Shown: positions 4,923 to 20,400 of the stretch, piece after piece | How positions within the stretch are numbered: the first letter of the stretch is position 1 | Layout of the letters: every line of letters starts with the position of its first letter | Origin: a bacterium | GTDB taxonomy: Bacteria > Zhuqueibacterota > QNDG01 | Assembly (NCBI GenBank): GCA_021158245.1 | Contig: JAGGVB010000179.1 | Location: 1 to 64,000 of the forward strand | Direction: 5' to 3' | Length of the DNA: 64,000 nucleotides | Notes under the pieces: generated by a model | The model's database searches: none | Seen by the model: only the letters and a program-made list of their open reading frames with translations | What the model was told of the DNA's origin: nothing | Made by a program: the position numbers and the translations under genes

Positions 4923-4951
4923 TTGATTTTTAAGATAATTATTTATATAAT
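4923..4951 (+). promoter_or_regulatory. sigma-70-type promoter of the surface operon
   Basis: TTGATT (4923-4928) and TATAAT (4946-4951) are separated by exactly 17 bases. A purine start would fall near 4958, giving a ~35-base leader that ends in a strong ribosome site (AAGGAGG at 4979-4985) before the ATG at 4994. No other gene starts nearby. Confidence 0.6.
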
Positions 4952-4993
4952 ACAGTAATTTAGATACAATAAACTTGCAAGGAGGTTATTACG

Positions 4994-7900
4994 ATGAGAA
5001 AGGGTTTTAATACCCGGCTTCCGGTTTTCGTCTTTATTTTGTTAATTCTTCCTGTTACATCTATATTTGCAAAATTTTGGGTCAACATCAAAAACATTAA
5101 CACAGGTGAGCCTATTACAAAATCACCATACATTGTTTCTCTAAAGACATATCAAATAGAAGGCCTTGAATTTACTGCCCATTTTGAGAATGAATCTTCT
5201 GATAAAACTATAACCTGCTGGCTAAGAAGAAAACCCGGATCTGAGCCGATACCGGATTATGTTGACGGCTGGAATGATTTTGAAGTTAATTTAAAACCGG
5301 GGCAGGATACAGTCTTTACAAATGTAATTTTCATAAGGCCTTCGGAAGCAGGTGCAGATAATTTTGTTCTTGAGATTGCACGCAGGCTTGGATTGAACCC
5401 CAGAGATCCAATATCTGCCAACAGAGAGGAAATAATTGTACGAACTATTAATTCCTCTCTTGAGCATCCAGTAATTCTTTCAGAACCGTCTTATACGAGA
5501 GGTACAAGGAATAGTGTGAAGTGGATACCTGTTGAAGGCAGCAGGATGCAGGAAGTTTACTATTTTGATGATGCTGACAGAAAGAATTTGAGAAAAGCGG
5601 TTAAGGGGCTTTACAAAGCATTGCTTTCCGATACATTAACTGAAACGTTCAATAATCTTAAAAACGGACATAAATACGGGTTTTTTGCAAAAGCAGTTTA
5701 TGAAACTGAGAATGGAGAGGAAGCTTATTATTCAGATATAGTATACTCTGTTCAGGATAATACACCTCCAGAAACAATTATAGAACCCCAGGCGATAATG
5801 CGGTATGGAAAGGTTGTTGTTTCATGGAACCTGATCCATGATGAACTAAGCGGAGTCGGATCATACCGAATATACAGAACTGCAGATTCTGGCATAGAAA
5901 AACGTTTGGCTGAAATTAACGCAGAGTGGCTAAGCAGCGGCCAGTGGATTGATACTTCTGCTGTTGGCGGGCACTATTATGCATATAGAATTCGTGCGGT
6001 TGATAAAGTCGGAAATGAGGGCAGCGGAGACATTTCTAACGATATATTCGTGGAGGGTTCGGAAGATATTGTAATTGATTATGATACTACTGATGTAACA
6101 AAAGATAACAGAAATGGTGATTTTATTTATGGCACGGTTGATACTATCTGGGTAAGGCTTGATAACAGAGAAAAATTCATCCGATTTGAATCAGTACGCG
6201 ACAGCTCCGGCTATTTTTCAAATCCGCCTTCAAGTAGTATGAGATATTATGATTCGGGATGGATAGAACCTGATAGCCTCAGGCAGCGGGGATGGTTAAG
6301 TACAACAAATTATGATTCGGTATTTTTTGTATTTGATTATTCAAGAAGCAAAAATGTGCAGGCAAATGATCAGGGGGGATTAGAAACGCCTTTACCTGAA
6401 ACGGTTGAAATAATAGATAAAAATTTAGTAAACGGCCATAAGTATATTCGAAGGTTTTTGCGCAAGTATTATTCAACAGTGCATACTGAAGATGCGGGAA
6501 GTATTATACCTGATTGTTTCCCGCCGGAAGACATACATAATCTTAAGGCCAATTCTGTTATGCAGGATGCAGCGGCGAGTGACCCTGCGCAGGGCTTTTC
6601 ATCGTATTTAATGTATCTTTCATGGGAAAAAGCTTCAGACGATGCTTCAGGGTTAAAAAGATATCATATCTATAGAAAAATCGGCTCTGATGGTAAGTTT
6701 GATGAACTGCCTCTGCCGGATGATTTCATAAATGTGAGTTATGTTGATACTCTCAGCCGTTTGGTTCTTAATGATATATCAAATCCAATGGTTTCATACA
6801 GAGTAGTTGCAGAAGATGCTGTCGGTAATGAAAGAAATATTGATTCTACCGAATGGGAAGCAGTTGAAAGAATACCCGGTAAACCTGTTCTGGTGTTTAC
6901 AACAACAGAGTATTCGGATATATATCCCTCTGATCCGTTGCAGGCAGACACAGTATTTACTCATGAAAAGTGTGTAGAATTAAGCATCAGAAATTTTGAT
7001 ACATCAGGCATTGTCTCCTGGACAGCTCTTGTTAACGGACAGCAGACAGACCCGTATGATGTTATTAATAATAATATTATTATTGTAAAGCTGCCTGACG
7101 ATGAAGTATCAAACATTAAGGTGCGGGGCGTATACACAGGCAAAATATCCAGTGTATGGTCTACTGAAAAAGTAGTTATAAGAGCTCTTACTATTGCTCC
7201 GAAAGATGTCACTGTTCGTACTGATACAAATTCGTGGGACGGAGATATTTATATGCAGTGGAAGAAGCCGTGCATAGCAGCTCAGAAATATCTTATACTT
7301 CGAAAAACAGCGCAGTCCGGCTGGTCTTTGACGGGCTCGGTTTTAACAGCAACTGATACAATAAAGTGGGTTGATAGATACGCAAGTAATGAATTAACAG
7401 AAGAAAACGGCGATATTCTTGTTGCATACAGAGATTATGAATACAAAGTAAAGATGGTTAACATAATGGGTGATACAAGTATTGCTGTTTTAGGAAACAT
7501 TGAGTACTGCAACAAACCTCCTGAAATCAGCAGCAACGAAACACCAAAGATAGAAAACGGCAATTATGTACTGTCAATTCATTGGGATAGAGTTTCCCCA
7601 AGTGATGCATCCGAAGGATATACCACTGTTGTAAGAATCTATGCAGACAGCCTTGAAGGCCCCTATGAAGAAGAGATTGTTGTTGACACAACAGCTTTTT
7701 ACTGCAGAACTGCTGTAATGAACACAAACTATATATTCAGAATTAAGGAGATACCGAACAAACCGGTAGGCAAGGAAAGTGCATGGTCTAAGCCTTACAT
7801 TGTGCCGGGGCTGGTTCACCTTCCATTGGAGGTTATTCCACAACCGGAAGGTTGCATTTATGTTAACTGGAACGCACCTGATCTTATAAAGAAGTATAAA

Positions 7901-9481
7901 ATTGAAAGATATATTGTTTTAAGAAACAATGATGCAATTACATACATAAACAAAACAGCAACATCATTTATGGATTCGGCAAAGTTTTTAATACACAGCC
8001 TGCCATATACTTACAAGGTTGAAGCTCTTAACAGGTTGGGGCAGGTCGTTGCTGTAGGCGTGAAGTCAGATACCAGTGATACAGGATCTGTTTATATCCC
8101 TGAGATTTCAGAAAATATGCAGAAATATTTTAAAAGTGATTCTGTTAATGTTTCCTGGAATTGGAAAGACAGGTATGGTAAGCCTGTTTCAGGTACAACA
8201 CGCGGTGCCGAAACCTGTATGATACAGGTTAGTGTAAGCAGATATTTCTCAGGCAACCGGAATGAAACTTCCACTATAGGCCCGTTTTCTGTAAATCCTG
8301 GCCTTACATCCAGAAAAGTAAAGATTCCTGTTCTTGCAAACAGAATAAATAATAAAATTTATTTCAGAATTACTGCTTTTGATAAATTCGGGAATACTGG
8401 GAATCCACCGGCTTTATGGTCAACAGATTTTTATAATTTAAAAACAGCAGTATATGATACAGTCCCGCCCTATCCTGTAACAAAGATATCCGTTGATTCT
8501 GTCCATGCATATTACGGAGCGTCTGATTCAATTATGGTCAGCCTTTCATGGGATGGAGCAGGAATTCAGACAGCTCCGGCAGATAACTCAATTGCGTGGG
8601 ATCAGCTTAGAGGTAATGTCGCAGAGTACAGGATAAAACGGATAACTGAAAGCGGTGTTACAGATGCTGGCAGTATTCCGGTTAACAAAAATAGTGTTTT
8701 TTACGTTCATAGGGATATCTTATCTAACAGAAATATTAAATGGAGTATTTCTGTGGTTGACAGTGCTGGAAATATAACAGATGGAACAGAGGCTGCCTCA
8801 CAGGTATTTCTGCCTACTCCGTTTCCACCTGAACCTGTTGATAAGAAAAAATGTACTATTCCTGTAAATACAAACCAGCCTGATACTGCGTACTATTTTG
8901 TTGAAATGGCAATGAATCCCGGACATTTTTCAATAGCATACGAATTAAAAGATGAAGATATGATGAACAGGCTGCTTTGCAGAAGCGGATGGATTGATGC
9001 CTCTTCGTATGAATGTACCAGCGGATGGGGAGCAATTGAAAATGATACTACCTGGTTCAGGCTTAAAACAGGAGTTAAACAGGGTGACAAATGGTGGGAA
9101 AGCGGGTGGTCTGCTGTTTCATTTATCGTTTCAGGACAGAACAGTACCAATAAATCCACTGGTATCGGCGATGTAGCAGAAGTCCCCAAATTTTTCAGAG
9201 TCGGGCAGAATTATCCTAATCCGTTTAATAGCGAGACTGTAATACCATTTCAACTTCCGTATGCTGCAAAAGTCAATGTTTCCATTTACAATATTTCAGG
9301 ATCAATTGTGAAAACTGTTGAAAACAGCATTAAAAATGCCGGATTCCATTCAGCCAGATGGAACGGAATGAGCGATGCGGGAACATCTGTCTCATCAGGA
9401 ATATACATATGTGTCGTTACAGCGAGCGGGAAAGACGGCAAAACATATCAATCCAGAAAGAAGTTGATGTTTGTAAAATAG
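4994..9481 (+). CDS. giant secreted multi-fibronectin protein with T9SS-type sorting domain
   Basis: A 1495-residue exported protein. It has a signal peptide (1-26, ..SIFA), an N-terminal beta domain, a series of fibronectin-III/Ig-like modules (recurring patterns such as VSWNLI..SGVGSYRIYR, LSWEKASDDASGLKRYHIYR and MQWKKP..KYLILRK), and a C-terminal domain at about 1399-1495. That domain starts GQNYPNPFNSETVIPFQLP and continues VSIYNISGSIVKTV..ARWNG..SSGIYICVV, the FlgD-Ig-like type A sorting domain of type 9 secretion substrates. Residues 164-176 (EPSYTRGTRNSVKW) share a motif with the next gene product. AAGGAGG precedes the ATG. It heads a ~15 kb operon and is probably anchored on, or released from, the cell surface. 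Binding target is unknown. Confidence 0.85.
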   Translation: MRKGFNTRLPVFVFILLILPVTSIFAKFWVNIKNINTGEPITKSPYIVSLKTYQIEGLEFTAHFENESSDKTITCWLRRKPGSEPIPDYVDGWNDFEVNLKPGQDTVFTNVIFIRPSEAGADNFVLEIARRLGLNPRDPISANREEIIVRTINSSLEHPVILSEPSYTRGTRNSVKWIPVEGSRMQEVYYFDDADRKNLRKAVKGLYKALLSDTLTETFNNLKNGHKYGFFAKAVYETENGEEAYYSDIVYSVQDNTPPETIIEPQAIMRYGKVVVSWNLIHDELSGVGSYRIYRTADSGIEKRLAEINAEWLSSGQWIDTSAVGGHYYAYRIRAVDKVGNEGSGDISNDIFVEGSEDIVIDYDTTDVTKDNRNGDFIYGTVDTIWVRLDNREKFIRFESVRDSSGYFSNPPSSSMRYYDSGWIEPDSLRQRGWLSTTNYDSVFFVFDYSRSKNVQANDQGGLETPLPETVEIIDKNLVNGHKYIRRFLRKYYSTVHTEDAGSIIPDCFPPEDIHNLKANSVMQDAAASDPAQGFSSYLMYLSWEKASDDASGLKRYHIYRKIGSDGKFDELPLPDDFINVSYVDTLSRLVLNDISNPMVSYRVVAEDAVGNERNIDSTEWEAVERIPGKPVLVFTTTEYSDIYPSDPLQADTVFTHEKCVELSIRNFDTSGIVSWTALVNGQQTDPYDVINNNIIIVKLPDDEVSNIKVRGVYTGKISSVWSTEKVVIRALTIAPKDVTVRTDTNSWDGDIYMQWKKPCIAAQKYLILRKTAQSGWSLTGSVLTATDTIKWVDRYASNELTEENGDILVAYRDYEYKVKMVNIMGDTSIAVLGNIEYCNKPPEISSNETPKIENGNYVLSIHWDRVSPSDASEGYTTVVRIYADSLEGPYEEEIVVDTTAFYCRTAVMNTNYIFRIKEIPNKPVGKESAWSKPYIVPGLVHLPLEVIPQPEGCIYVNWNAPDLIKKYKIERYIVLRNNDAITYINKTATSFMDSAKFLIHSLPYTYKVEALNRLGQVVAVGVKSDTSDTGSVYIPEISENMQKYFKSDSVNVSWNWKDRYGKPVSGTTRGAETCMIQVSVSRYFSGNRNETSTIGPFSVNPGLTSRKVKIPVLANRINNKIYFRITAFDKFGNTGNPPALWSTDFYNLKTAVYDTVPPYPVTKISVDSVHAYYGASDSIMVSLSWDGAGIQTAPADNSIAWDQLRGNVAEYRIKRITESGVTDAGSIPVNKNSVFYVHRDILSNRNIKWSISVVDSAGNITDGTEAASQVFLPTPFPPEPVDKKKCTIPVNTNQPDTAYYFVEMAMNPGHFSIAYELKDEDMMNRLLCRSGWIDASSYECTSGWGAIENDTTWFRLKTGVKQGDKWWESGWSAVSFIVSGQNSTNKSTGIGDVAEVPKFFRVGQNYPNPFNSETVIPFQLPYAAKVNVSIYNISGSIVKTVENSIKNAGFHSARWNGMSDAGTSVSSGIYICVVTASGKDGKTYQSRKKLMFVK

Positions 9482-9509
9482 ATCCTTTTAAAACAGGGAA
9501 TTATTAACA

Positions 9510-10583
9510 ATGGGAAAAAACAAATTTACTTTACAGTTAACAATAATTTTTGTTATTGCAGTTTTTGCGGCAGGCAGTGCTCAAATTAAGAGAGTTCATG
9601 TATTCCAAAATGCTGCAGATTTTGCACCTCAAATTAATTTTGCAAAAGCAGCGGTTGATACAACTCTGCCTGAGCCGAAACTGCATTCTGAACCGGAATA
9701 TACATGGGGGCTTGAAAATACTGTTTATTGGAACAGTGACAGTATAAAAGCGGTTGTTGCCAAAGTGCAGGCAAAAGTGATCCTGTATGAAGTAGAGGCT
9801 CTATACAATGATGTGGAAAAATGGGGTTATGTAGATTCATGGAAGAATTCTGCTACTTTTAATGAACTTCCGGGCGGAGTTGAAATATCCTACCGGATCA
9901 GGTATCTTGCTGATAAGGGCAGTGATAATTATGCTTTTAGCAAGTGGTCTCCAGTAGAAACTTCAATTCAGGATGTTTCTCCGCCTTTTATTACTCAATG
10001 GACTATTAAGCACCTGCAGAAGAGCGGGGGAATTAACTGGATTATCGGGCAAACCATTGATAACCGGATAATTGCAGCTGATACTGCTCTCGGCAAGGTA
10101 ATGGAGATTAGTATTCGGGAAATAAGTGAAAGTATTGAGCAGAAAACATCTATAAATATTAAAAAACCGCGGCCAGGGATTGATACGACATTTCAGTATA
10201 CAATTCTTTCTCCTGCTCATGAACAGCTTTCACTTGTTTTACAGGTGAAGGATCTGGCTGGACAGTTGTCAAAACCTGATACTATTGTCATTTTCTGGTG
10301 GCCGTTTGAGGGAGAAGATAAGGATGTGCTTTGCTTTCCCAATCCGTTTAACCCGGAGGTAAATGAAAGGTCCATAATTAAGTGCAGTGTACCTGAAGCT
10401 ACGGAAGCAAGGATTTATGACCTTTTCGGCAATCTTGTAAGGGTACTAACTAAAACTGCGGATGATTATTTTTTTGAATGGGACGGCAGAAACGGAGAAG
10501 GCGATGTTGTATCAAACGGGGGATATGTTTGTGTAATAAGAAATGCATTAAGCAAATATTGCAAGATAGCAGTTATCCGATAA
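9510..10583 (+). CDS. secreted protein with FlgD-Ig-like C-terminal sorting domain
   Basis: A 357-residue exported protein: signal peptide (1-24, ..AAGSAQ), a fibronectin-like module opened by EPEYTWGLENTVYW (61-74), a second beta module from about residue 155, and a C-terminal domain from about 273 (CFPNPFNPEVNERSIIKCSV..ARIYDLFGNLVRVL..FEWDGRNGEGDVVSNGGYVCVI). The latter is the same sorting/FlgD-Ig fold as in the 4994 gene. It follows that gene by 28 bases and looks like a shorter partner with the same architecture. It could be a surface subunit or adaptor; no enzymatic domain is visible. Confidence 0.8.
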   Translation: MGKNKFTLQLTIIFVIAVFAAGSAQIKRVHVFQNAADFAPQINFAKAAVDTTLPEPKLHSEPEYTWGLENTVYWNSDSIKAVVAKVQAKVILYEVEALYNDVEKWGYVDSWKNSATFNELPGGVEISYRIRYLADKGSDNYAFSKWSPVETSIQDVSPPFITQWTIKHLQKSGGINWIIGQTIDNRIIAADTALGKVMEISIREISESIEQKTSINIKKPRPGIDTTFQYTILSPAHEQLSLVLQVKDLAGQLSKPDTIVIFWWPFEGEDKDVLCFPNPFNPEVNERSIIKCSVPEATEARIYDLFGNLVRVLTKTADDYFFEWDGRNGEGDVVSNGGYVCVIRNALSKYCKIAVIR

Positions 10584-10610
10584 AAAAAACTGGGATTAAT
10601 TGTCGAGAAA

Positions 10611-12641
10611 ATGATGAATAAAAAAAATATAATTATTGTTTTGACAGTTCTTGCTCTTTTTTCGGCAAGATCATTAAGTGCACAGGGTTACGGAGGCTAT
10701 CCGGGAGAATTTTTGAGATACGGGATAGGAGGCCGGGCTCTTGGTATGGGTAGAGCGTTTGTGGCTGTAGCGAATGATGCAAGCGGAATTTTATGGAATC
10801 CTGCAGGCATTGTCGGAGCTCAGTATTCCGAATTTAATTCTATGTATTCAAATTTATATTATGACAGCCAATTTGCCAATGCAGGCATTATTCTACCCCG
10901 TATTTTTAATCTTAAGGATCCTGTAGGCAAATATCTTCTCGGAAAAAACTCTTCTATAGGTTTTGCATGGGTGGGCCTTGCCAGCGCATCATATGAGCAG
11001 CGTACGGTAACGGGTGTAAAATTAGGCGATTTTAATATTGGTGAAAATGCTTTCCTGCTGTCATGGGCTCATGAAAATACCGGGTTATGGGGTATTTTCA
11101 GATATGGTACAACTATAAAATTTGTAAGCCAGAATTTTTCAGGAATTCAGGAAGAAGTGTATCGGGAGATTCAGTCCCATACAAGAAGCTGGTCAGGAGG
11201 GATAGATATCGGCATGACATTCCAGCCTATTCATGCGCCTGTTTTTAAAGTGTTTGCACTGCGTTACCTTCTTCCGCTGCGTTTTGGAATTAATCTTCAG
11301 AATATTATTCAGCCTGGTTGGAGAATACATTCCAATGATAGTGACAGGTTTCCGCGGGTACTGCGTATGGGATTAAGCTATCGGTTTATTATGAAAGACT
11401 GGATTCCTCGTTCATGGACAGGTGTTAGAAAATTTTTCGAGGGAACTGAAATACTATTTGCATATGATAGAGAATACTATGAGGCTATCCCTGCAGGAAA
11501 TTACATGGGATTTGAAGGTATGATTCCTATCAAAGATAATAGTTTTGTGTTTTATCCGAGATTCGGGTTTAACAACAGATCTGAAGGGCCCTCATTCGGA
11601 TTTGGATTGCAGGTTCCTTTTACAAACAAAGCGTCAGTACGAATTGATTATGTCTACGGATCCCATCCGTATCTTCCGGAGGATAATAGATTTTTTATAT
11701 CCCTTAAATTCGGGAAACAAAAGGGAAGTAAATACTTTAATAACAGAGCAAAACTAGAAAAGGGAAATGACCCGGTTGAGCGCAATAACCTTTTCCGTGT
11801 TCTTGCACTTTATCCGAATTCTGATATAGATGCGGCTGTAAGAGACCTCGCTGACAGAGTTGATACCCTGCGTGCAAGAAGATATTATGACTTGACAGGC
11901 GGGCTTGGCAGAGCGGAACTTCTGTTCAGGGAGGCAAAAAAACTTCTTGTAAAAGGAGATGGGCACGGAGCAAGGAAGAAGGCAAATGAAGCCGCTGAAG
12001 AGTATTTACCAATTTTCAATGAGGAAAATAATACGCTGACAGACAATCAATTAATGGATTTCAGTGAATGCTATATAATCACGGAAAAGATGAATGACGC
12101 ATTGGGAATTCTTCAGGAAGTGGATAAAGTCAGTTTGAGGCATTATTATCTTGATGGAGTCTGCAGAAAATATAACGGCCAGTGGGACAAGGCCATTGAA
12201 GTGTTCCGCAAAGCTGCAAAACAGTTTGAAAGCGAACAGGATCGTAACAGTATGGTAAGGCTTTCCATTCTTGCTTTGGGGGAATCGCTGTTAAAGAAAA
12301 AACAGTATGAATCATCATTAAAGGCGCTTGAACTTCTTCAGAAAAAGACTTACATAAATAAACTTTCGCCTGAATATCCCCGTTATCCAATTTATAATGA
12401 TCTGTACATTGTTGATGAAGCACAGTTTCTTACGGGAGTTTGTTATCTTTCTCTTGGAGATTATGAGCGCGGTGTAACTGAAATTATGAAGACACAGCGA
12501 TATTATCCAAACCTTGATTATGGAGTTTACGTTGGAATGCACAGCACAGAACTTATTCAGGCTTTAATGGCAAATGACAAAGAGAGGCTGAATTCCATAA
12601 CCAGCGAATTTACAAATGACTATTTTAAGTATTTGCGGTAG
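10611..12641 (+). CDS. PorV/UPF0164-type outer-membrane protein with C-terminal TPR domain
   Basis: A 676-residue protein with a signal peptide (..RSLSAQ). The N-terminal motif YGIGGRALGMGRAFVAVAND followed by SGILWNPAG marks the PorV/PorQ/UPF0164 family (FadL-like barrels). In type 9 secretion PorV is the outer-membrane shuttle that binds the sorting domain of substrates. The barrel spans roughly residues 30-380; the rest is helical with TPR-like repeats (for example WDKAIEVFRKAAKQF and YESSLKALELLQKK), which normal PorV lacks. Lying directly behind two sorting-domain proteins, it is the obvious candidate for their outer-membrane receptor. The barrel-TPR fusion suggests coupling to a periplasmic partner. 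Role is inferred from context. Confidence 0.78.
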   Translation: MMNKKNIIIVLTVLALFSARSLSAQGYGGYPGEFLRYGIGGRALGMGRAFVAVANDASGILWNPAGIVGAQYSEFNSMYSNLYYDSQFANAGIILPRIFNLKDPVGKYLLGKNSSIGFAWVGLASASYEQRTVTGVKLGDFNIGENAFLLSWAHENTGLWGIFRYGTTIKFVSQNFSGIQEEVYREIQSHTRSWSGGIDIGMTFQPIHAPVFKVFALRYLLPLRFGINLQNIIQPGWRIHSNDSDRFPRVLRMGLSYRFIMKDWIPRSWTGVRKFFEGTEILFAYDREYYEAIPAGNYMGFEGMIPIKDNSFVFYPRFGFNNRSEGPSFGFGLQVPFTNKASVRIDYVYGSHPYLPEDNRFFISLKFGKQKGSKYFNNRAKLEKGNDPVERNNLFRVLALYPNSDIDAAVRDLADRVDTLRARRYYDLTGGLGRAELLFREAKKLLVKGDGHGARKKANEAAEEYLPIFNEENNTLTDNQLMDFSECYIITEKMNDALGILQEVDKVSLRHYYLDGVCRKYNGQWDKAIEVFRKAAKQFESEQDRNSMVRLSILALGESLLKKKQYESSLKALELLQKKTYINKLSPEYPRYPIYNDLYIVDEAQFLTGVCYLSLGDYERGVTEIMKTQRYYPNLDYGVYVGMHSTELIQALMANDKERLNSITSEFTNDYFKYLR

Positions 12642-12673
12642 AGCTTGAGATATTTAATTTTATCGGCAGGATA

Positions 12674-13747
12674 ATGAAAGTTTTTGATAAATTATTAACA
12701 TTATGCATAGTATTTATTCTGATGCAGAACAGCATCGGAGCTGTGGGTGTGCGGGATGGTAAATATGATTTAATTTATCAGGTTTCACCGCCGAAAGGTT
12801 TTTCAATAACAAGAGGGAGTGTACAATTTCAATGGAGAACATCTTCATCTTTTAATGCTGACGAGATTGATCGGTTTGTGGTCTCAATTTGGTCAGTCAG
12901 GAAGAAATCTGTTCAATTTTTTACTGTTAATCCTGGAGACAGAAAACATTTATTTTCATTAACTGTAGATGAAATTAGACAGATTTGCCCCAGGCATGGC
13001 CGGTATTTTTGGAAAGTTACACTTTTTACCAAAAAAGGTAAAAAATTTGATACGAAAGATGGTGATTTTAAAGTAAAAGCATGGACTTTACGGGAAGGAA
13101 AGGATGAAGTATACAATAAGCATCTCTATGGAATAGAATTTGCATACTTTGATAGACTTGGTACAGATGAACAGAAAAGGTTCACAAGAACAGTTTTGAC
13201 AGATTTGCTTTTTAAGAGTTATTCGGAATTAAGATTCGTTTTTCAGCAAAATAATATTTTTGGATTGCCTGTAACTTTATCTGAGAAAGTTAAGATTTTA
13301 ATGCTGCCCGGGGTAGGATTGGATATTTGCGGAAAGATTAATTTGATAAAAAACAATATTTTCAGCCTGTCCCCTCGTTTTGGTATAAGCGGATCTTGCG
13401 CTGCGACATCAGTAGCGGAAACTCAAAGTATATTGTATTTTTATTATGCCGGTTCGGAATTGTCTTTTATGCCAGGAGGGTATCTGACATTAATAGGAGA
13501 TTATATCCTCAGGTATAATATGCCGTACCAGACAGAAACATTTAAAGTGCTGACTTTTAACGGTTCCGGATATCGTTATGGAATAAGATACTTTTTTTCT
13601 CGAAGTGTCATTCCGACCTGGACGATCGGAAAACTGAAAATTGACATGAGAAAGGTTCCGATTGAATTTTTTATCGAAATAATTAGAGATGATTATACAG
13701 GAACAGAAATTAAAACAAGAAGAGTTAGTCTCGGATATTATTTTTAG
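12674..13747 (+). CDS. exported Ig-like/beta-barrel protein, unknown function
   Basis: Not a family I recognise. The 357-residue product has a signal peptide (..NSIGA), an Ig/fibronectin-like domain at about 35-135 (VQFQWRTSSSF..GRYFWKVTLFTKKG) and a C-terminal half made of amphipathic beta strands ending in YYF. An aromatic last residue is typical of BAM-inserted outer-membrane barrels. It lies 32 bases after the PorV-like gene and 24 bases before the ExbB fusion. A role as the outer-membrane or periplasmic partner of the ExbB/ExbD/TonB set is plausible from position only. Confidence 0.7.
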   Translation: MKVFDKLLTLCIVFILMQNSIGAVGVRDGKYDLIYQVSPPKGFSITRGSVQFQWRTSSSFNADEIDRFVVSIWSVRKKSVQFFTVNPGDRKHLFSLTVDEIRQICPRHGRYFWKVTLFTKKGKKFDTKDGDFKVKAWTLREGKDEVYNKHLYGIEFAYFDRLGTDEQKRFTRTVLTDLLFKSYSELRFVFQQNNIFGLPVTLSEKVKILMLPGVGLDICGKINLIKNNIFSLSPRFGISGSCAATSVAETQSILYFYYAGSELSFMPGGYLTLIGDYILRYNMPYQTETFKVLTFNGSGYRYGIRYFFSRSVIPTWTIGKLKIDMRKVPIEFFIEIIRDDYTGTEIKTRRVSLGYYF

Positions 13748-13771
13748 CAAGAGGGTAAGGAGGACAATACA

Positions 13772-15115
13772 ATGAAACATCGCTGGCCATTATCAATGCC
13801 ATTTGGTATTGCAGCAGCATTATTTTTGCTTTTTCCGGTTATGGCTTTTTCTCAAACGGCTGTAAAAGTTCATATTAACGGGTTAAAACAGGAACTGGAG
13901 AAGAACTGGCTTAAAGTCCCAAAGAGCAGTAATTGTACCGTATTTTGGGAGGCATCAGGTGCTCAGTCGGATATTTTAAATAAAGATACATTTGGCAGAA
14001 TTGACGGATATCGTGTAAAGTGCCTTGTAGAAAATATTGAGCAGCAAAGTGTTACTGCTCAAAAAGATAAAAATTTTGTTACTTTTAACGGATTGGAATT
14101 AGGTAAACGCTATTCGTTTGTTGTTGATGCTGTAAACAGCGGCGAAGTTGTAGCTGCATCTGATACAGCGAGGCTCCTTACCGGCCGGGTATATTCTGCT
14201 GATGGAAACGGAGGTTCCGGAAAACCATGGTATTATTTGTATTTTCCATTGAGCGGAAGAATACCCATGGCACTTATAGGAAGAGGCTATGTATTTGATA
14301 CTTCAACAAAAGCAGGGAAAATAGCATTCCACCTGATTTGGAATGCATTCTTGGCAGGAATGATAATATGGGTATTCTTCTGCTGGCGGTTTCTTAGAAT
14401 GAACAGAGTGTTCCCTCTTCGTAAAAAGCTCTTTTTATTCGGTAAGAGTTATCAAGGCACGTATAAATATGTTTCTCAGGATTTTAAAGAAATAATTACA
14501 AAGTGGCACAGGTTAGTTAATCTTGCAAATACTCATGTAAGAGAGGGGATAAAAAACGGAACCCACTCCAGGATAGAAGATATTGAGATGGATAATATTA
14601 AATTCTGGAGAGAAAGCGGTTCAAACAGTATAAGGCAGTTGTTAAGAAGAATTGCCGATCCTTCATTGCATTTAACAGACTATCCTGCAGTAAGAATTAT
14701 AAAAGCGGGCCTGGAAACTCATGAACTTGGCGGATTCCGGTGGGGTGAAGTATCCCGTGAAGTTGACAGAGTTATTGAAAACAGGGCATCCTCGGAAATT
14801 GAGCAGTTGAAGAGAAGCAGCCTTATTGACTGGCTCTGGAATCTTGGCACATTAGCTCCTTTGATAGGCCTTTTTGGTACTGCCACAGGAATTTCTCATG
14901 CTTTTGCAATGCTGACAATGGTACATGCGGACATATCTCAGAGCGAACTCGTGAGACGCCTTGCAGGAGGTATATTTGAAGCATTATGGACAACCATTTT
15001 AGGCCTTTTTGTAGGAATTATGCTTATGCTTCTTTTCTACTATTATCAGAATAAACTAAACTGGCTTTATGCTAAATGGGAAAACATTTACGTAAATATC
15101 TCAGAAAGCATGTAA
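13772..15115 (+). CDS. fibronectin-domain/ExbB (MotA-TolQ-ExbB) proton channel fusion
   Basis: A 447-residue inner-membrane protein. A signal sequence (1-27, ..MAFSQ) is followed by an extra periplasmic fibronectin-like domain (about 30-140, FGRIDGYRVKCLV..ELGKRYSFVVDAV), then TM1 (184-208), a cytoplasmic helical region (209-350), TM2 (353-378, LGTLAPLIGLFGTATGISHA) and TM3 (402-426, ALWTTILGLFVGI). The last two carry the ExbB/TolQ core signature and the conserved threonines. Normal ExbB is 220-250 residues without a periplasmic beta domain, so the fusion is unusual. Two ExbD genes follow, so it should form the pentameric channel of a proton-driven motor. AAGGAGG lies before the ATG. Confidence 0.88.
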   Translation: MKHRWPLSMPFGIAAALFLLFPVMAFSQTAVKVHINGLKQELEKNWLKVPKSSNCTVFWEASGAQSDILNKDTFGRIDGYRVKCLVENIEQQSVTAQKDKNFVTFNGLELGKRYSFVVDAVNSGEVVAASDTARLLTGRVYSADGNGGSGKPWYYLYFPLSGRIPMALIGRGYVFDTSTKAGKIAFHLIWNAFLAGMIIWVFFCWRFLRMNRVFPLRKKLFLFGKSYQGTYKYVSQDFKEIITKWHRLVNLANTHVREGIKNGTHSRIEDIEMDNIKFWRESGSNSIRQLLRRIADPSLHLTDYPAVRIIKAGLETHELGGFRWGEVSREVDRVIENRASSEIEQLKRSSLIDWLWNLGTLAPLIGLFGTATGISHAFAMLTMVHADISQSELVRRLAGGIFEALWTTILGLFVGIMLMLLFYYYQNKLNWLYAKWENIYVNISESM

Positions 15116-15140
15116 TGGTAGTTCTGGAAAGGATTATGTA

Positions 15141-15761
15141 ATGGCTTTTATTAAAAATGATGAGAGAAAAAGCCTGAGTCTTCCCGGAATGATAGATATC
15201 ATTTTTCTGCTGTTGATTTTTTCTCTCGTGACGCTTTCAACCTCCGAGTCAGGTGTGGAAGCAAAAAAGAGAGGGGAACATACAGATAAGTTTGACCTTC
15301 CTCATGTTAATCAGGCAGAAACATATGAAGTAAGTACTGTCTTAAAGACACTGCTTTTTCAGATTGAAAAGGATACATCAGGCGCTAAATATGTTCTTGC
15401 ATTATGGCCGAATGTCAGAGATTCCCTTACTCTTGATCAAGCGAGGCAAATAGCTGTTAACAATTGGATCGCATCTTCACAGAAAGGCGTAAAACCAAAA
15501 TTTATGGTAAAAGTGCCTGAAAATTATTTAAAGTTGAGTGAGGCGGATTTTAAAAAAACGGATGTATGTAAGTTAATAAGCAGTTCAATTAGAAAATATC
15601 AGGAAGAAAATTTTTTTGAGCCTTCTTTATCAAACAGAATAGAGATCAGAGCAGTTAAGGATACTGAGTTCAGGCTTATCAATTATATAATGTCCGAGAG
15701 CGGTAAGTATGGGAAATTAATTCCACGATGTGTATTCAGAACATTAACTGAGGAGAAGTGA
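15141..15761 (+). CDS. ExbD/TolR-like proton channel subunit (first copy)
   Basis: Biopolymer transport subunit with a short cytoplasmic tail, one membrane helix (about 15-33, PGMIDIIFLLLIFSLVTLS) and a periplasmic domain. Asp19 in the helix matches the proton-carrying Asp of ExbD/TolR. The 206-residue length exceeds the usual ~140, with an extended periplasmic part. It is 25 bases after the ExbB fusion and 3 bases before a second ExbD. The two copies differ strongly outside the helix, so they probably form a heterodimer in the ExbB ring. Confidence 0.85.
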   Translation: MAFIKNDERKSLSLPGMIDIIFLLLIFSLVTLSTSESGVEAKKRGEHTDKFDLPHVNQAETYEVSTVLKTLLFQIEKDTSGAKYVLALWPNVRDSLTLDQARQIAVNNWIASSQKGVKPKFMVKVPENYLKLSEADFKKTDVCKLISSSIRKYQEENFFEPSLSNRIEIRAVKDTEFRLINYIMSESGKYGKLIPRCVFRTLTEEK

Positions 15762-15764
15762 TCT

Positions 15765-16367
15765 TTGGCATTTAAAGCAATACAAAATAAGAAAGAAAAA
15801 ATAGAGCTTATTTCTTTAATTGATGTGCTTTTTATTCTGCTTGTTTTTTTTCTGGTTACAAGTTTTGTAATACGGTTGCCTCTGCAGGAAAGAAATATAT
15901 CTATTCCGACACCGGAGCAGAAGAGCGGCAGGGCACAGATTGTGATACAGCTTACAGACGGGAATAGTGTTTTCTGGCTTGATGAAAATGCATCTTTTGT
16001 AGTAAAAGATATTGAAAACAGAATGGGATATATGTCAAGAGACAAGCTTAACAAGTATATTGTCAATAAGCTAATAAAAGATTTCACTATGCCATGGCCT
16101 GAATTTGAGAAAAAACTTAACGGCCTGATTCAAAGGGCGGATCGAAGCCCTGGACATGAATATTTTGTTATGATAAGGTGCCCTGATTATCTGCCGTATA
16201 TTGATGTTGTAAATATAATTGCAAGATTAAAAACTCAATATAGTAATATAAATTATGGGTGCGTCAGCGGAACAATAGATGACATTAAATCGTGCCGGTC
16301 AATCAGGACTGTGACAGAAATTGATAAACGCGGAAGAAGAAGAAAAAATATTCAGATAGATTTTTAA
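15765..16367 (+). CDS. ExbD/TolR-like proton channel subunit (second copy)
   Basis: A 200-residue ExbD-type protein. The N-terminus KIELISLIDVLFILLVFFLV (from residue 12) holds the single helix and the conserved Asp20. The periplasmic part contains the usual ExbD pattern of a beta strand and helix ending in VMIRCPDYLPYIDVVNIIARL. The start is TTG at 15765 with GAGGAG at 15750-15755; it lies only 3 bases after the first exbD stop. The C-terminal tail is very basic (KRGRRRKN). It probably pairs with the first ExbD. Confidence 0.85.
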   Translation: MAFKAIQNKKEKIELISLIDVLFILLVFFLVTSFVIRLPLQERNISIPTPEQKSGRAQIVIQLTDGNSVFWLDENASFVVKDIENRMGYMSRDKLNKYIVNKLIKDFTMPWPEFEKKLNGLIQRADRSPGHEYFVMIRCPDYLPYIDVVNIIARLKTQYSNINYGCVSGTIDDIKSCRSIRTVTEIDKRGRRRKNIQIDF

Positions 16368-16424
16368 TTATTGAAATTTTGCATTTGTTTATAGGTAGTC
16401 TATTTATTATAAGACTGGGTTAAT

Positions 16425-17009
16425 ATGGGAAAAGGATCTTATATAAGGGATTTTATAATTTTTGTTGTAATTGCAGCTGTGGCTTTTCTTGCAGTCTGGA
16501 GAAAATTGCAAATAGATAAAATTCCTTTTGAAAAAGTACTGCTTAATGCTTCAGAGGAATATGAATCAATAAAAATACCTCCCCGTCCGGGCCTTCAGGG
16601 AATCACTATTACCGGTGAGGTAATTCAGCCACTTGTTTTTTCGATAATAGGCAAAGCTACGGTAACTGCTCTCGACTGGAACAGGCTTAATTCTCATGCA
16701 GTTGTTAAAATTACTGCATGGATTGATGAAAGAGGAAGGTTGTTTATTAATGAGATGCGGTCCGGCGGCCATACGGAAGCAGGCCTTTTAATTCAGGATG
16801 CTCTCCAAACATGGATATATACACCCTATAAAACAGGTATTATTAAATTCTTTTTTAATCTACCGTCAAAAGGGAAAAAATTAATCATTGACACAAGCGG
16901 ATTAAGAAGAAAAGATGATATTCCTCCTGATAAGCCTATTTACGACGGCCATGTATATTTTATAAATGGAGTTAAACCGTCAGAAGTTGGCATAGGAACT
17001 TTTCAATGA
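16425..17009 (+). CDS. TonB-like energy transducer
   Basis: A 194-residue bitopic protein: membrane helix at about 8-25 (IRDFIIFVVIAAVAFLAVW), a short linker, and a C-terminal domain (about 85-150) with the TonB-type order: strand KITAWIDERGRLFINEM, the helix opened by GGHTEAGLLIQDALQTW, then IYTPYKTGIIKFFFNL. The proline-rich spacer of classical TonB is missing, so the reach into the periplasm is short. Following ExbB and two ExbD genes it completes an ExbBD-TonB set. It may contact the neighbouring periplasmic TPR-NHL protein or the barrel proteins of the same operon. Confidence 0.68.
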   Translation: MGKGSYIRDFIIFVVIAAVAFLAVWRKLQIDKIPFEKVLLNASEEYESIKIPPRPGLQGITITGEVIQPLVFSIIGKATVTALDWNRLNSHAVVKITAWIDERGRLFINEMRSGGHTEAGLLIQDALQTWIYTPYKTGIIKFFFNLPSKGKKLIIDTSGLRRKDDIPPDKPIYDGHVYFINGVKPSEVGIGTFQ

Positions 17010-17089
17010 GAGTTATTATTAGGAAAAAGTTTTGTTAGTACCGATAAAATATGTTGTATGTTTTTAATATTAAAAAAGAGGGCGATCCC

Positions 17090-20000
17090 ATGCGTATAAT
17101 GCGCAAAGTTTTTATCATTGTATTGATTGGAGCCGGAGTTTTGCTTGGCAGTCAGAATTCAGAGGATAAGGGATTTTACCATTCCGAAGGTCTGGCTCTT
17201 TTTAATAAGGGCAATTACATCAGCGCCATCAAGTTATTAAAAAAGAGGGCAGAGCAGTTTGAATCTCAGAGAGGCCTTTCGTATTACTATCTCGGTGAAT
17301 CATATTACAATCTTGGCCTGATGACTGCAACGCATAGTGAAGCGGTCGGTAATTTCCAGCAGGCATTAAATTATTTTTCAAAAACAAATAAACAGGCTGA
17401 TATTAAAGCACGTTATCCTGAATTGGGGGACCAGGCTGCCTATAAGAAGGCGTGGTCTGTTTTCAGAATTGCTGAGTTCCAATCAGATCCGAGAAAAAAA
17501 CTTAATGAAGCAAAAAATGCATTTCTCGATGCTGCTGATAAATCCAGTGATTCATTGAAATATCAGTCTCAATACATGGAGGCCGAGTGCAGCCTGAGGC
17601 ATTCAAAGTATAGTAAAATAGTTATGCTTCTTAGCGATAATGAAGGTTTTAATAAAAGTGTAGCAAAAATTATTATATCAAATTTGAATACAAGTATTCG
17701 TATTTTCAAGATGTTGAGTGATTATCCTGACATTTCTGATGATATGAGAATCAGTGCTAAAATAAAAATGCAGGATGCTTTTTTTGAAAAAGGAATTTTG
17801 TTTGAGAATTTAACATCAGCGGTTTTTAATGCAGTCAGACAGAGTGCTACTGCTGCAGATCCGGTGTCAGCGGCAAAGAATAGTTTTGAAAAAGCAGATT
17901 ATGAATCAATTGAACAAGGGCTTTCTCCGTCTGCTTTAAAAAAATATGGGAGTTTGTTAACCTATTCAAAAGCTGAAAAATATCTATCTCTCTATCTATT
18001 AACCGGAGATGATAAGTACAGACTTCGGTTAAATCAGATGATTGATGTAATGAAACTTGCAGCGCTGATAAATGAGAAAAATTTTATGAAAGGGGTAAGA
18101 GATTTTAATACTCCGTCAGATGATGAATCTTTTTATAAACTTTCACAAAAGCCTTCAAGTTTTTTTGCAAGGACAGCTAACGCACTGCCGGAAGCGTGGT
18201 ATTGGTTCGGCTGGGTTCAATTTGTTGCAAATACAGGGAACAGTGAACAGCAGTTTGTATCATATTTAAGAAATTCAGCAAAAATAAATTTTGATGTAAG
18301 GACAAAATTTTTAAGAGAAGACGCAAGATACAGGTCATTTTTAATCAGATTTGATAAAAATATTAATAAGCGCAGAGCATTAAGAAAATTAATAAGGGAG
18401 CTTCAGGCATTCCAGCCAAAGAATCAATTAATTAAGGATGAGAGCGGATTATTAATGAAACTGATTCAGGTGAGCCTGGGTGAGCAGATCTGGGGTAATA
18501 TTGTTCCGCAATCATCGCATTCTGTTATGTTCAGAAAGATTTTTAATCTGGTAAGGCAAATGCTTGTCAGGGCGACAAGAGTTACCGGCAAGGAGAGGGT
18601 ACCTTATCTTGATTGTCTTGATAAACTTTTCCAGGTGACAAAGGACCGCCGTCAGGTAGAAACATCTTTTTATAAAGGAATGTACCTGTTCCTGAAAGCT
18701 GAAATACAGGAGACTTCTGCCGACAAGCTTTCTTTTTATCTCGAAGCATCCAAAATATTGAATAATATAAGCGGCAATTTCAAGAATGAAGGAAGCTACA
18801 TAAAGGCAAGAAGTATTTTTGCAGCTGCCAAACATGAGAAAAATAAGAGAAGTATGGCAAAAATGTATGAGGATGCAAAACCGATTTTTGTAAACCTGAT
18901 TAACAAGTCTCGCAGTCTGAGATCGCTATACTATCTCGGAGAAATATTCAGGATAAGCGGTAATGATGCTGCAGCAAAAGAGTGTTATAAAGTGATTGTA
19001 GAGAAAACCAAGAGCATCCCAAATGCTGTGTTCTGGTATAATAATGCAAAGGCCGGAATACAAAGCTGTTCTGCAAAGGGAGATTTGGCACAAGTAAAAG
19101 GTATTGATATAAATAATGTAAAATATCCGGAACGATTGCTTGTTGTTGACGGAGAAGAGATATCTCTGGAACGTTTTGCCGACCCTGGATATGTAAGAAG
19201 TCTGTACCGCAGTGATGCATTGACTCTTATGAAAAAATTTGGAATGCCTAAATTATCGTTATATCCGTCTGATAATTTACTTCAGGGTTCCGTATTTAAG
19301 GATAGAGCGTTCCCTGGCCTGTCATCAGGCATAAATGAAAGAACAGGATCAATAAGTTCAGGTATGAAGCTTTACGTGATACTGCCGGCAGGAATAACAA
19401 GAACTACAGAAGTTTCAATTGACGGTAAAGCTGTCAACCCTAATAGTAATGGTGTATATGTTAAATCCTCCATACTTTTAGGCAGTAGAGCTGTAATTAA
19501 AATCAGAAACAGTGAGTGCTATCCGTATATTGATAAACATAAGTTTACGAAACCGGGTTCTGAAGAAATTGTTGTGTCTCTGCTTCCGTATCTTTCGTTT
19601 AAAAGCAGCGGGCAGGAAACAGAGCCCGGAGTGAATGTAATTCGTCTTACAGACAGGCTTGATGATCCTCTGTTTATAAAAACAGGCGGGATAGTTCCTG
19701 ATGAATCCTCTCTAATGTTAAAGGATTTTAAGGAAGATATAAATTTGCGTGATTTTGATTTTTCTTCTGTTTTAAACAAGTTTCTTGTTGTTAAAGGTGA
19801 TGAATCAAATCTCATAGAGTATAGAAATGATTCAAAGATTTCTAAAGAAGGTGTATTAAATCTAATTTATCCTGTAACTGCAAAAAAAATTATAAGCCCG
19901 GAAAATATTGCAATTGATAATAAGGGCAATATTTATGTTGTTGACTGGGGCAGCCACAGAATTGTTGTATTTAACAGCAAGGGTGAGTATTTAAGGGCAA

Positions 20001-20332
20001 TAGGCGGGCTTGGGGAGAATCCTCCCGGGCATACAGGGAAAAGTGTACATTTTGTATTCCCAACAAGTATTGCTATTGCTCAGGATGAAGACGGCATAAT
20101 GCTGAACGGAAAAACCCGTCACCGGAATCCTCTTCTTTTTGTCGGAGATAAATACGGTATCCATTTGATCACAGCAACAGGTGTATACTGGGATACAATT
20201 GATATTCCAGGAACAGAGGATGGCTCAGGATATACAATTGCAGTTAAGGGGTATGGTATAAATATGAGAATATATCTTGCCAATAAGAAAACAGATAAGA
20301 TGGAAAGGTTTAATGCAGTTCTAAGAAAGTAG
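17090..20332 (+). CDS. large exported TPR-NHL repeat protein
   Basis: A 1080-residue periplasmic or surface protein. The signal peptide (IMRKVFIIVLIGAGVLLGSQ) precedes TPR-like helices in the first ~700 residues (for example EGLALFNKGNYISAIKLLKK, LSYYYLGESYYNLG, SLRSLYYLGEIFRISG). A PEGA-like or beta segment follows (LYVILPAGITRTTEVSIDGK) and then NHL-type beta-propeller repeats from about residue 930 (PENIAIDNKGNIYVVDWGSH). The ATG at 17090 behind AAAAGAGGG is preferred over an in-frame ATG at 17051 that would add 13 residues before the signal peptide. It is the last gene of the operon, 30 bases before a strong terminator. A scaffold role is likely. Confidence 0.78.
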   Translation: MRIMRKVFIIVLIGAGVLLGSQNSEDKGFYHSEGLALFNKGNYISAIKLLKKRAEQFESQRGLSYYYLGESYYNLGLMTATHSEAVGNFQQALNYFSKTNKQADIKARYPELGDQAAYKKAWSVFRIAEFQSDPRKKLNEAKNAFLDAADKSSDSLKYQSQYMEAECSLRHSKYSKIVMLLSDNEGFNKSVAKIIISNLNTSIRIFKMLSDYPDISDDMRISAKIKMQDAFFEKGILFENLTSAVFNAVRQSATAADPVSAAKNSFEKADYESIEQGLSPSALKKYGSLLTYSKAEKYLSLYLLTGDDKYRLRLNQMIDVMKLAALINEKNFMKGVRDFNTPSDDESFYKLSQKPSSFFARTANALPEAWYWFGWVQFVANTGNSEQQFVSYLRNSAKINFDVRTKFLREDARYRSFLIRFDKNINKRRALRKLIRELQAFQPKNQLIKDESGLLMKLIQVSLGEQIWGNIVPQSSHSVMFRKIFNLVRQMLVRATRVTGKERVPYLDCLDKLFQVTKDRRQVETSFYKGMYLFLKAEIQETSADKLSFYLEASKILNNISGNFKNEGSYIKARSIFAAAKHEKNKRSMAKMYEDAKPIFVNLINKSRSLRSLYYLGEIFRISGNDAAAKECYKVIVEKTKSIPNAVFWYNNAKAGIQSCSAKGDLAQVKGIDINNVKYPERLLVVDGEEISLERFADPGYVRSLYRSDALTLMKKFGMPKLSLYPSDNLLQGSVFKDRAFPGLSSGINERTGSISSGMKLYVILPAGITRTTEVSIDGKAVNPNSNGVYVKSSILLGSRAVIKIRNSECYPYIDKHKFTKPGSEEIVVSLLPYLSFKSSGQETEPGVNVIRLTDRLDDPLFIKTGGIVPDESSLMLKDFKEDINLRDFDFSSVLNKFLVVKGDESNLIEYRNDSKISKEGVLNLIYPVTAKKIISPENIAIDNKGNIYVVDWGSHRIVVFNSKGEYLRAIGGLGENPPGHTGKSVHFVFPTSIAIAQDEDGIMLNGKTRHRNPLLFVGDKYGIHLITATGVYWDTIDIPGTEDGSGYTIAVKGYGINMRIYLANKKTDKMERFNAVLRK

Positions 20333-20361
20333 TTTTGTTAATTTATAGAAAATTAGTTGAA

Positions 20362-20400
20362 ATATCCGGGCAGTTTTTAAGGAATGCCCGGATATTTTTT
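20362..20400 (+). terminator. strong intrinsic terminator of the surface operon
   Basis: ATATCCGGGCA (20362-20372) and TGCCCGGATAT (20385-20395) form a perfect 11-bp stem with a 12-base loop, followed at once by a T run. It ends the operon that starts at 4994. Confidence 0.92.

What the first reader, a model, noticed from the sequence alone, without database searches (positions are those of the whole stretch)
4923..20400. A complete ~15 kb operon that looks like a self-powered surface export/assembly system
Seen: nine genes between a sigma-70-like promoter (4923) and a perfect 11-bp terminator (20362), with gaps of 3-80 bases. Order: two sorting-domain secreted proteins, PorV-like/TPR, Ig-barrel, fibronectin-ExbB, ExbD, ExbD, TonB-like, TPR-NHL. 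Known: PorV binds type A sorting domains in type 9 secretion; ExbBD converts proton flow to periplasmic movement. Inferred: the operon encodes substrate, outer-membrane receptor and its own motor, an alternative to the GldL/GldM motor of classical T9SS. The combination is not one I know as a described system.
Basis: partly seen in the sequence, partly recalled or inferred. Interest (0 to 1): 0.75.

Follow-up and report, generated by a model that had tools for sequence, protein, structure and literature searches.

The report
Motor-linked surface protein secretion gene cassette
A block of nine genes, kept in the same order across several poorly known bacterial phyla, appears to pair exported surface proteins and their outer-membrane carrier with a proton-driven motor, a combination I could not find described and whose function is untested.

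Summary
The nine genes are real and end at a strong terminator; the promoter has no statistical support. The window lies in a KSB1/Zhuqueibacterota-type genome. The order secreted protein(s) – PorV barrel/TPR – [Ig/barrel, nearly confined to one order] – ExbB – ExbD – ExbD – TonB-like – TPR/NHL held in all 35 loci examined (some cut by contig ends), including loci labelled Caldithrix, Zixibacteriota and Delongbacteria. The PorV-like protein's best solved-structure match is T9SS PorV; protein A carries a type A sorting domain above its curated cut-off; the proton-channel residues are invariant. The stronger claim, that this replaces GldL/GldM as the T9SS motor, is weakened: SprA is in 56 of 59 relatives and PorU in 20 of 20 tested, yet about 16 of 53 near-complete genomes carry the canonical cassette. 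GldL and GldM were not detected in any relative, but without a positive control. Best reading: a specialised module that exports its substrates through the resident SprA/PorU system, docks them on a dedicated shuttle, and works on them with an ExbBD/TonB-type motor, resembling Myxococcus AglRQS-Glt in its parts. The last step is inferred. I found no description of it; a new variant built from known modules.

The parts
4923..4951 (+). sigma-70-like promoter match (TTGATT-17-TATAAT); unproven
   Evidence: 10 of 12 matches, but site count in the region is not above shuffles
4994..9481 (+). Protein A: 1495-aa secreted protein with signal peptide and C-terminal T9SS type A / FlgD_ig sorting domain
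   Evidence: (TIGR04183 31.9 bits, cut-off 23)
9510..10583 (+). Protein B: 357-aa secreted protein with C-terminal sorting-like domain (much longer, about 760-1825 aa, in several relatives)
10611..12641 (+). PorV-like outer-membrane barrel (about 14 strands, residues 73-367) fused to a C-terminal TPR domain (373-675)
   Evidence: PorV_fam 1.3e-19, below its cut-off; pLDDT 87; best PDB match 8gl6_F, 2.2e-10
12674..13747 (+). Secreted protein with N-terminal Ig-like part and probable outer-membrane barrel; nearly confined to the order (a weak match also in L044)
   Evidence: no Pfam or NCBIfam family
13772..15115 (+). ExbB/TolQ-type motor subunit with N-terminal signal and periplasmic fn3-like domain
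   Evidence: T370, T407, T408 invariant in 23 sequences
15141..15761 (+). ExbD/TolR-type subunit 1
   Evidence: 21.3 bits, below cut-off; membrane Asp19 in 21 of 21
15765..16367 (+). ExbD/TolR-type subunit 2
   Evidence: 53.6 bits; membrane Asp20 in 22 of 22
16425..17009 (+). TonB-like arm: one membrane helix (3-31), unstructured linker, C-terminal domain resembling TonB-CTD
17051..20332 (+). Periplasmic scaffold: signal sequence, TPR-rich N-terminal region, NHL beta-propeller C-terminal region; no OmpA-like domain matched
20362..20400 (+). Intrinsic terminator
   Evidence: -21.9 kcal/mol, z -5.4

Best explanation
This is a self-contained accessory module of a SprA/PorU-type type IX secretion pathway. 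Proteins A and B cross the inner membrane by Sec and the outer membrane through the SprA translocon encoded elsewhere (inferred from their signals, SprA and PorU). They are collected by the cassette's own PorV-like barrel, whose fused TPR domain should lie in the periplasm. An ExbB pentamer with a pair of different ExbD subunits (stoichiometry inferred from known relatives) uses proton flow to drive the TonB-like arm, and the TPR/NHL protein links that arm to the TPR domain of the shuttle. The motor then does mechanical work on the docked surface proteins, most likely moving, tensioning or releasing them. Shown: gene content, order, conservation, families, intact proton-channel residues, SprA and PorU in the genome. 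Inferred: every physical contact and the purpose of the force.
For: Same order in all 35 loci with no exception apart from contig ends and one to three ExbB copies. A's sorting domain above cut-off and seen or approached in relatives. PorV fold and family. Invariant channel Thr and Asp residues. SprA 721 bits, PorU 821 bits; SprA also in cassette carriers outside the order, 6 of 7 above cut-off and the seventh fragmentary. Motor, arm and scaffold diverge together (distance correlation 0.84-0.92) while the PorV protein follows less closely (0.70-0.74), as expected if one motor unit serves changing surface proteins. Flavobacterium operons pair a substrate with its own shuttle, and the shuttle sets static or mobile fate (PMC12618676).
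Against: No experiment. No interaction was modelled. The TonB-like helix lacks the conserved His of TonB/TolA, so coupling to ExbB is assumed. B's sorting domain and the first ExbD fall below curated cut-offs. Loci were fetched by similarity to this ExbB, which favours finding the cassette.
Confidence: 0.5

Rival explanations
1. The motor energises export itself, but only of the cassette's own substrates: it supplies the force that the GldL/GldM motor gives to SprA in Bacteroidota.
For: GldL and GldM undetected in 59 relatives and GldM in 7 further carriers; substrates and shuttle in the same operon; blocking GldL traps substrates on SprA in Flavobacterium (PMC10994853).
Against: Most SprA-bearing relatives lack the cassette, so export of other sorting-domain proteins needs another power source that could serve A and B too.
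Confidence: 0.2
2. The cassette is the general T9SS motor of these bacteria, replacing GldL/GldM.
For: No recognisable GldL/GldM, yet strong SprA and PorU.
Against: Canonical cassette in about 16 of 53 genomes at least 90% complete; counting the variant with two ExbB genes adds few. SprA is in 45 of 46 of the best genomes.
Confidence: 0.07
3. A TonB-type uptake system: A and B capture something outside and the FadL/PorV-type barrel imports it with ExbBD/TonB energy.
For: ExbB, ExbD and a TonB-like protein normally power import; FadL-type channels are the next best fold matches.
Against: No TonB-dependent receptor in the cassette; the closest fold is T9SS PorV, ahead of FadL; a TPR domain and sorting-domain proteins are not part of such importers.
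Confidence: 0.12
4. A Tol-Pal-like envelope-stabilising complex that happens to sit beside surface-protein genes.
For: ExbB's best curated matches are TolQ; TPR and propeller proteins also occur in Tol systems.
Against: No Pal or OmpA-like peptidoglycan-binding protein in the operon; the surface and PorV-like genes are kept at every locus; the cassette is patchy, unlike an envelope housekeeping system.
Confidence: 0.06

Closest known systems
Type IX secretion system (SprA, PorU, PorV, GldL/GldM motor)
   Same: Sorting-domain substrates and a PorV-family shuttle; SprA and PorU present elsewhere in the genome.
   Different: The cassette has no SprA or PorU; its motor is ExbB/ExbD/TonB-like, not GldL/GldM; the PorV barrel carries a TPR domain.
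Myxococcus AglRQS-Glt gliding and Nfs spore-coat machines
   Same: One TolQ/ExbB-type and two different TolR/ExbD-type subunits, a membrane protein with a TonB-like motif (GltG), TPR proteins, outer-membrane proteins (PMC3169522).
   Different: Different gene set and order; no T9SS sorting domains or PorV there; not reported outside its own group. Homology of the Glt proteins was not tested here.
TPR - TolQ-like - two TolR-like - vWA force transducer operons (PMC12204202)
   Same: TPR gene, one TolQ-like and a pair of different TolR-like genes with a putative force transducer; function unknown.
   Different: vWA transducer instead of a TonB-like one; no sorting-domain substrates or PorV described.
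Flavobacterium substrate / SprF-like shuttle / PorE-like anchor operons (PMC12618676)
   Same: A T9SS substrate encoded with its own shuttle and a periplasmic TPR/propeller protein (PorE has TPR, propeller, CRD and OmpA_C domains; PMC7192894).
   Different: [quoted passage not shown] PorE ends in a peptidoglycan anchor. Here no OmpA-like domain was matched and a motor is added.

Membership tests
Type IX secretion system | SprA/Sov translocon | tested here: met
   Not in the cassette but in the genome: TIGR04189 721 bits vs cut-off 200; PF14349 in 56 of 59 relatives
Type IX secretion system | PorU sortase | tested here: met
   NF033707 821 bits vs 420 in the own genome; 20 of 20 relatives over cut-off
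Type IX secretion system | Substrates with a type A sorting domain | tested here: met
   Protein A TIGR04183 31.9 vs 23 bits; protein B below cut-offs
Type IX secretion system | PorV shuttle | tested here: inconclusive
   Family E 1.3e-19 but 70.9 bits vs cut-off 90; fold best matches PorV
Type IX secretion system | GldL/GldM (PorL/PorM) motor | tested here: inconclusive
   None of 59 relatives over cut-off with TIGR03517, TIGR03513, PF12081; no positive control; the two weak hits looked spurious
Type IX secretion system | PorK/PorN (GldK/GldN) ring | not tested
ExbB/ExbD/TonB-type energised system | MotA/TolQ/ExbB channel with membrane Thr residues | tested here: met
   PF01618 70.8 bits; Thr invariant in 23 of 23
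ExbB/ExbD/TonB-type energised system | ExbD with membrane Asp | tested here: met
   Asp in 21 of 21 and 22 of 22
ExbB/ExbD/TonB-type energised system | TonB/TolA arm with conserved membrane His | tested here: not met
   No conserved His in the helix; C-terminal domain TonB-like only weakly
ExbB/ExbD/TonB-type energised system | TonB-dependent receptor in the same operon | tested here: not met
   No such domain in the nine proteins
Myxococcus AglRQS-Glt | Homologues of GltD, GltE, GltG with AglR, AglQ, AglS | not tested
   Resemblance is in part types only

The most novel reading that the evidence does not exclude
A previously undescribed class of trans-envelope machine in FCB-group bacteria, in which an ExbBD/TonB-type motor acts through a TPR-bearing PorV shuttle on T9SS-exported surface proteins, for example as an adhesin-moving engine independent of GldL/GldM.
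Probability: 0.3. Interest if true: 0.85.

Novelty: new variant of a known kind. Interest (0 to 1): 0.68.

Why it matters
T9SS surveys treated the system as confined to Bacteroidota and defined it with GldL/GldM (PMC4793230). Here SprA and PorU are nearly universal in another phylum where those motor proteins are not detected, and a patchy, strictly ordered cassette puts an ExbBD-type motor next to T9SS substrates and a PorV-like shuttle. If real as a machine, it would be a further case of the ExbB/TolQ motor family driving a surface process, and it makes the question of what powers SprA outside Bacteroidota directly testable.

Tried and rejected
Promoter as evidence for the operon: rejected, site count equals shuffles. 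Cassette tied to the upstream secretin/PilT genes: rejected, relatives have other genes there. Apparent gene-order exceptions in L036 and L040: artefacts of my ORF picker choosing long antisense frames; domain positions restore the order. Cassette as universal T9SS motor: rejected by its patchy distribution. Weak GldL and GldM hits (L087, L105): inside a proline-dehydrogenase-like protein and a coiled-coil/TPR-like protein, judged spurious. A second set of PorV-TPR proteins in cassette-lacking genomes was followed up: they sit between giant secreted proteins and a SpoIIE/HAMP/TPR protein, with no motor genes nearby. Rfam: nothing in the window. Literature searches for the combination found no description, in an open-access library only.

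Full report
What was checked. The terminator is strong; the promoter is only a pattern match. Upstream are a secretin gene and a PilT-like gene; downstream, after a gap of 162 bases, is a prolyl oligopeptidase-like gene fused to an FGE-sulfatase domain. Relatives have other neighbours on both sides, so the nine genes are the unit.

Where it comes from. The genome (G000) is 3.2 Mb in 233 contigs, 95% complete. Matching public records are labelled candidate division KSB1, 'bacterium', Deferribacteres or Caldithrix, which fits KSB1/Zhuqueibacterota, an FCB-group phylum without cultured members in the paper read (PMC11683472; no occurrence there of 'secretion' or 'motility').

Conservation. I fetched loci by similarity to this ExbB and typed them with profiles of each cassette protein. 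Thirty loci have the canonical layout and five a variant with two or three ExbB genes (L051, L052, L057, L059, L084). The order was the same in all 35; missing genes are at contig ends. Records include Zixibacteriota (L083), Delongbacteria (L084) and Caldithrix sp. (L079) as titled. Because fetching was by the cassette ExbB, this does not count ordinary ExbB/TolQ genes, which every genome has and which scored far lower. The Ig/barrel gene is found in the window's order, with one weak match elsewhere (L044).

The parts. Protein A ends in a type A sorting domain. The PorV-like protein is predicted at pLDDT 87 with about 14 barrel strands and then TPR helices; its best PDB match is PorV in a T9SS complex, 8gl6_F, E 2.2e-10, ahead of FadL. 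ExbB and both ExbDs keep the proton-path residues in every sequence aligned. The TonB-like protein has one helix, a loose linker and a C-terminal domain; TonB is the only sequence match (E 0.015) and the best fold match (E 0.039), so 'TonB-like' is fair but weak, and the usual membrane His is absent. The last protein joins TPR-type repeats to an NHL propeller in 20 of 21 members, with no OmpA-like domain matched.

The rest of the T9SS. SprA is strong in this genome (TIGR04189 721 bits) and in 56 of 59 relatives; one of the three apparent misses, JdFR-76, has it by the longer model (as L069). PorU is strong in 20 of 20 relatives, and PorV/Q-like proteins number 21 or more in this genome. GldM and GldL gave no match over cut-off in any relative, nor did GldM in seven further cassette carriers. 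The tool warns that without a genome known to contain them this does not prove absence, and I could not reach a Bacteroidota genome.

Is it the T9SS motor? Against genomes at least 90% complete, full matches to the TPR/NHL protein occurred in 16 of 53 (G017 has two cassettes), and PorV-TPR full-length matches, which include the multi-ExbB variant, add only a few genomes. SprA is in nearly all. So the cassette is an option, not the standing motor. It may still power export of its own substrates.

How it probably works. In Flavobacterium a T9SS substrate's shuttle also decides whether the protein stays put or moves (PMC12618676), and PorE-like TPR/propeller proteins anchor some shuttles to the cell wall. 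Here the shuttle carries a periplasmic TPR domain, the anchor-like protein lacks a recognised wall-binding end, and a motor with a periplasm-crossing arm is present. The simplest reading is that force replaces the anchor: the docked surface proteins are pulled, moved or released. Part for part this is closest to AglRQS-Glt of Myxococcus, but I did not test homology to the Glt proteins, so that is 'works like', not 'is a'. The motor, arm and scaffold have diverged together while the PorV protein tracks them less well, which suits a motor unit serving changing surface cargo.

Limits. No interaction was modelled, the Ig/barrel protein was not folded, PorK/PorN were not searched, most genomes are metagenome assemblies, and the literature searched is open-access only. 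The function of the force is inference.

Noticed in passing
L090-L100, e.g. L090:907-15622: A second conserved block in many relatives: a giant secreted protein (about 1900-3200 aa), a PorV-TPR protein, a HAMP/SpoIIE/TPR protein and a 230-aa protein (STAS in L090), with no ExbB/ExbD. Looks like a signalling-linked surface system.
   Followed up: partly
G000 and 58 relatives: SprA and PorU without detectable GldL/GldM across the phylum; what powers this T9SS is open, pending a positive control.
   Followed up: partly
window 20495-23182: Prolyl oligopeptidase (S9) fused to a C-terminal FGE-sulfatase-like domain.
   Followed up: no
window 46892-49204: 770-aa protein with no Pfam match at 1e-5.
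   Followed up: no
L084:7405-11899 and 17122-18720: Delongbacteria locus with three ExbB-like genes in a row and a fourth after the last cassette gene.
   Followed up: no
G017:C14 (L043 and L044): One genome carries two cassettes about 37 kb apart on one contig; L044 is closer to the window's in its PorV protein than L043 is.
   Followed up: partly
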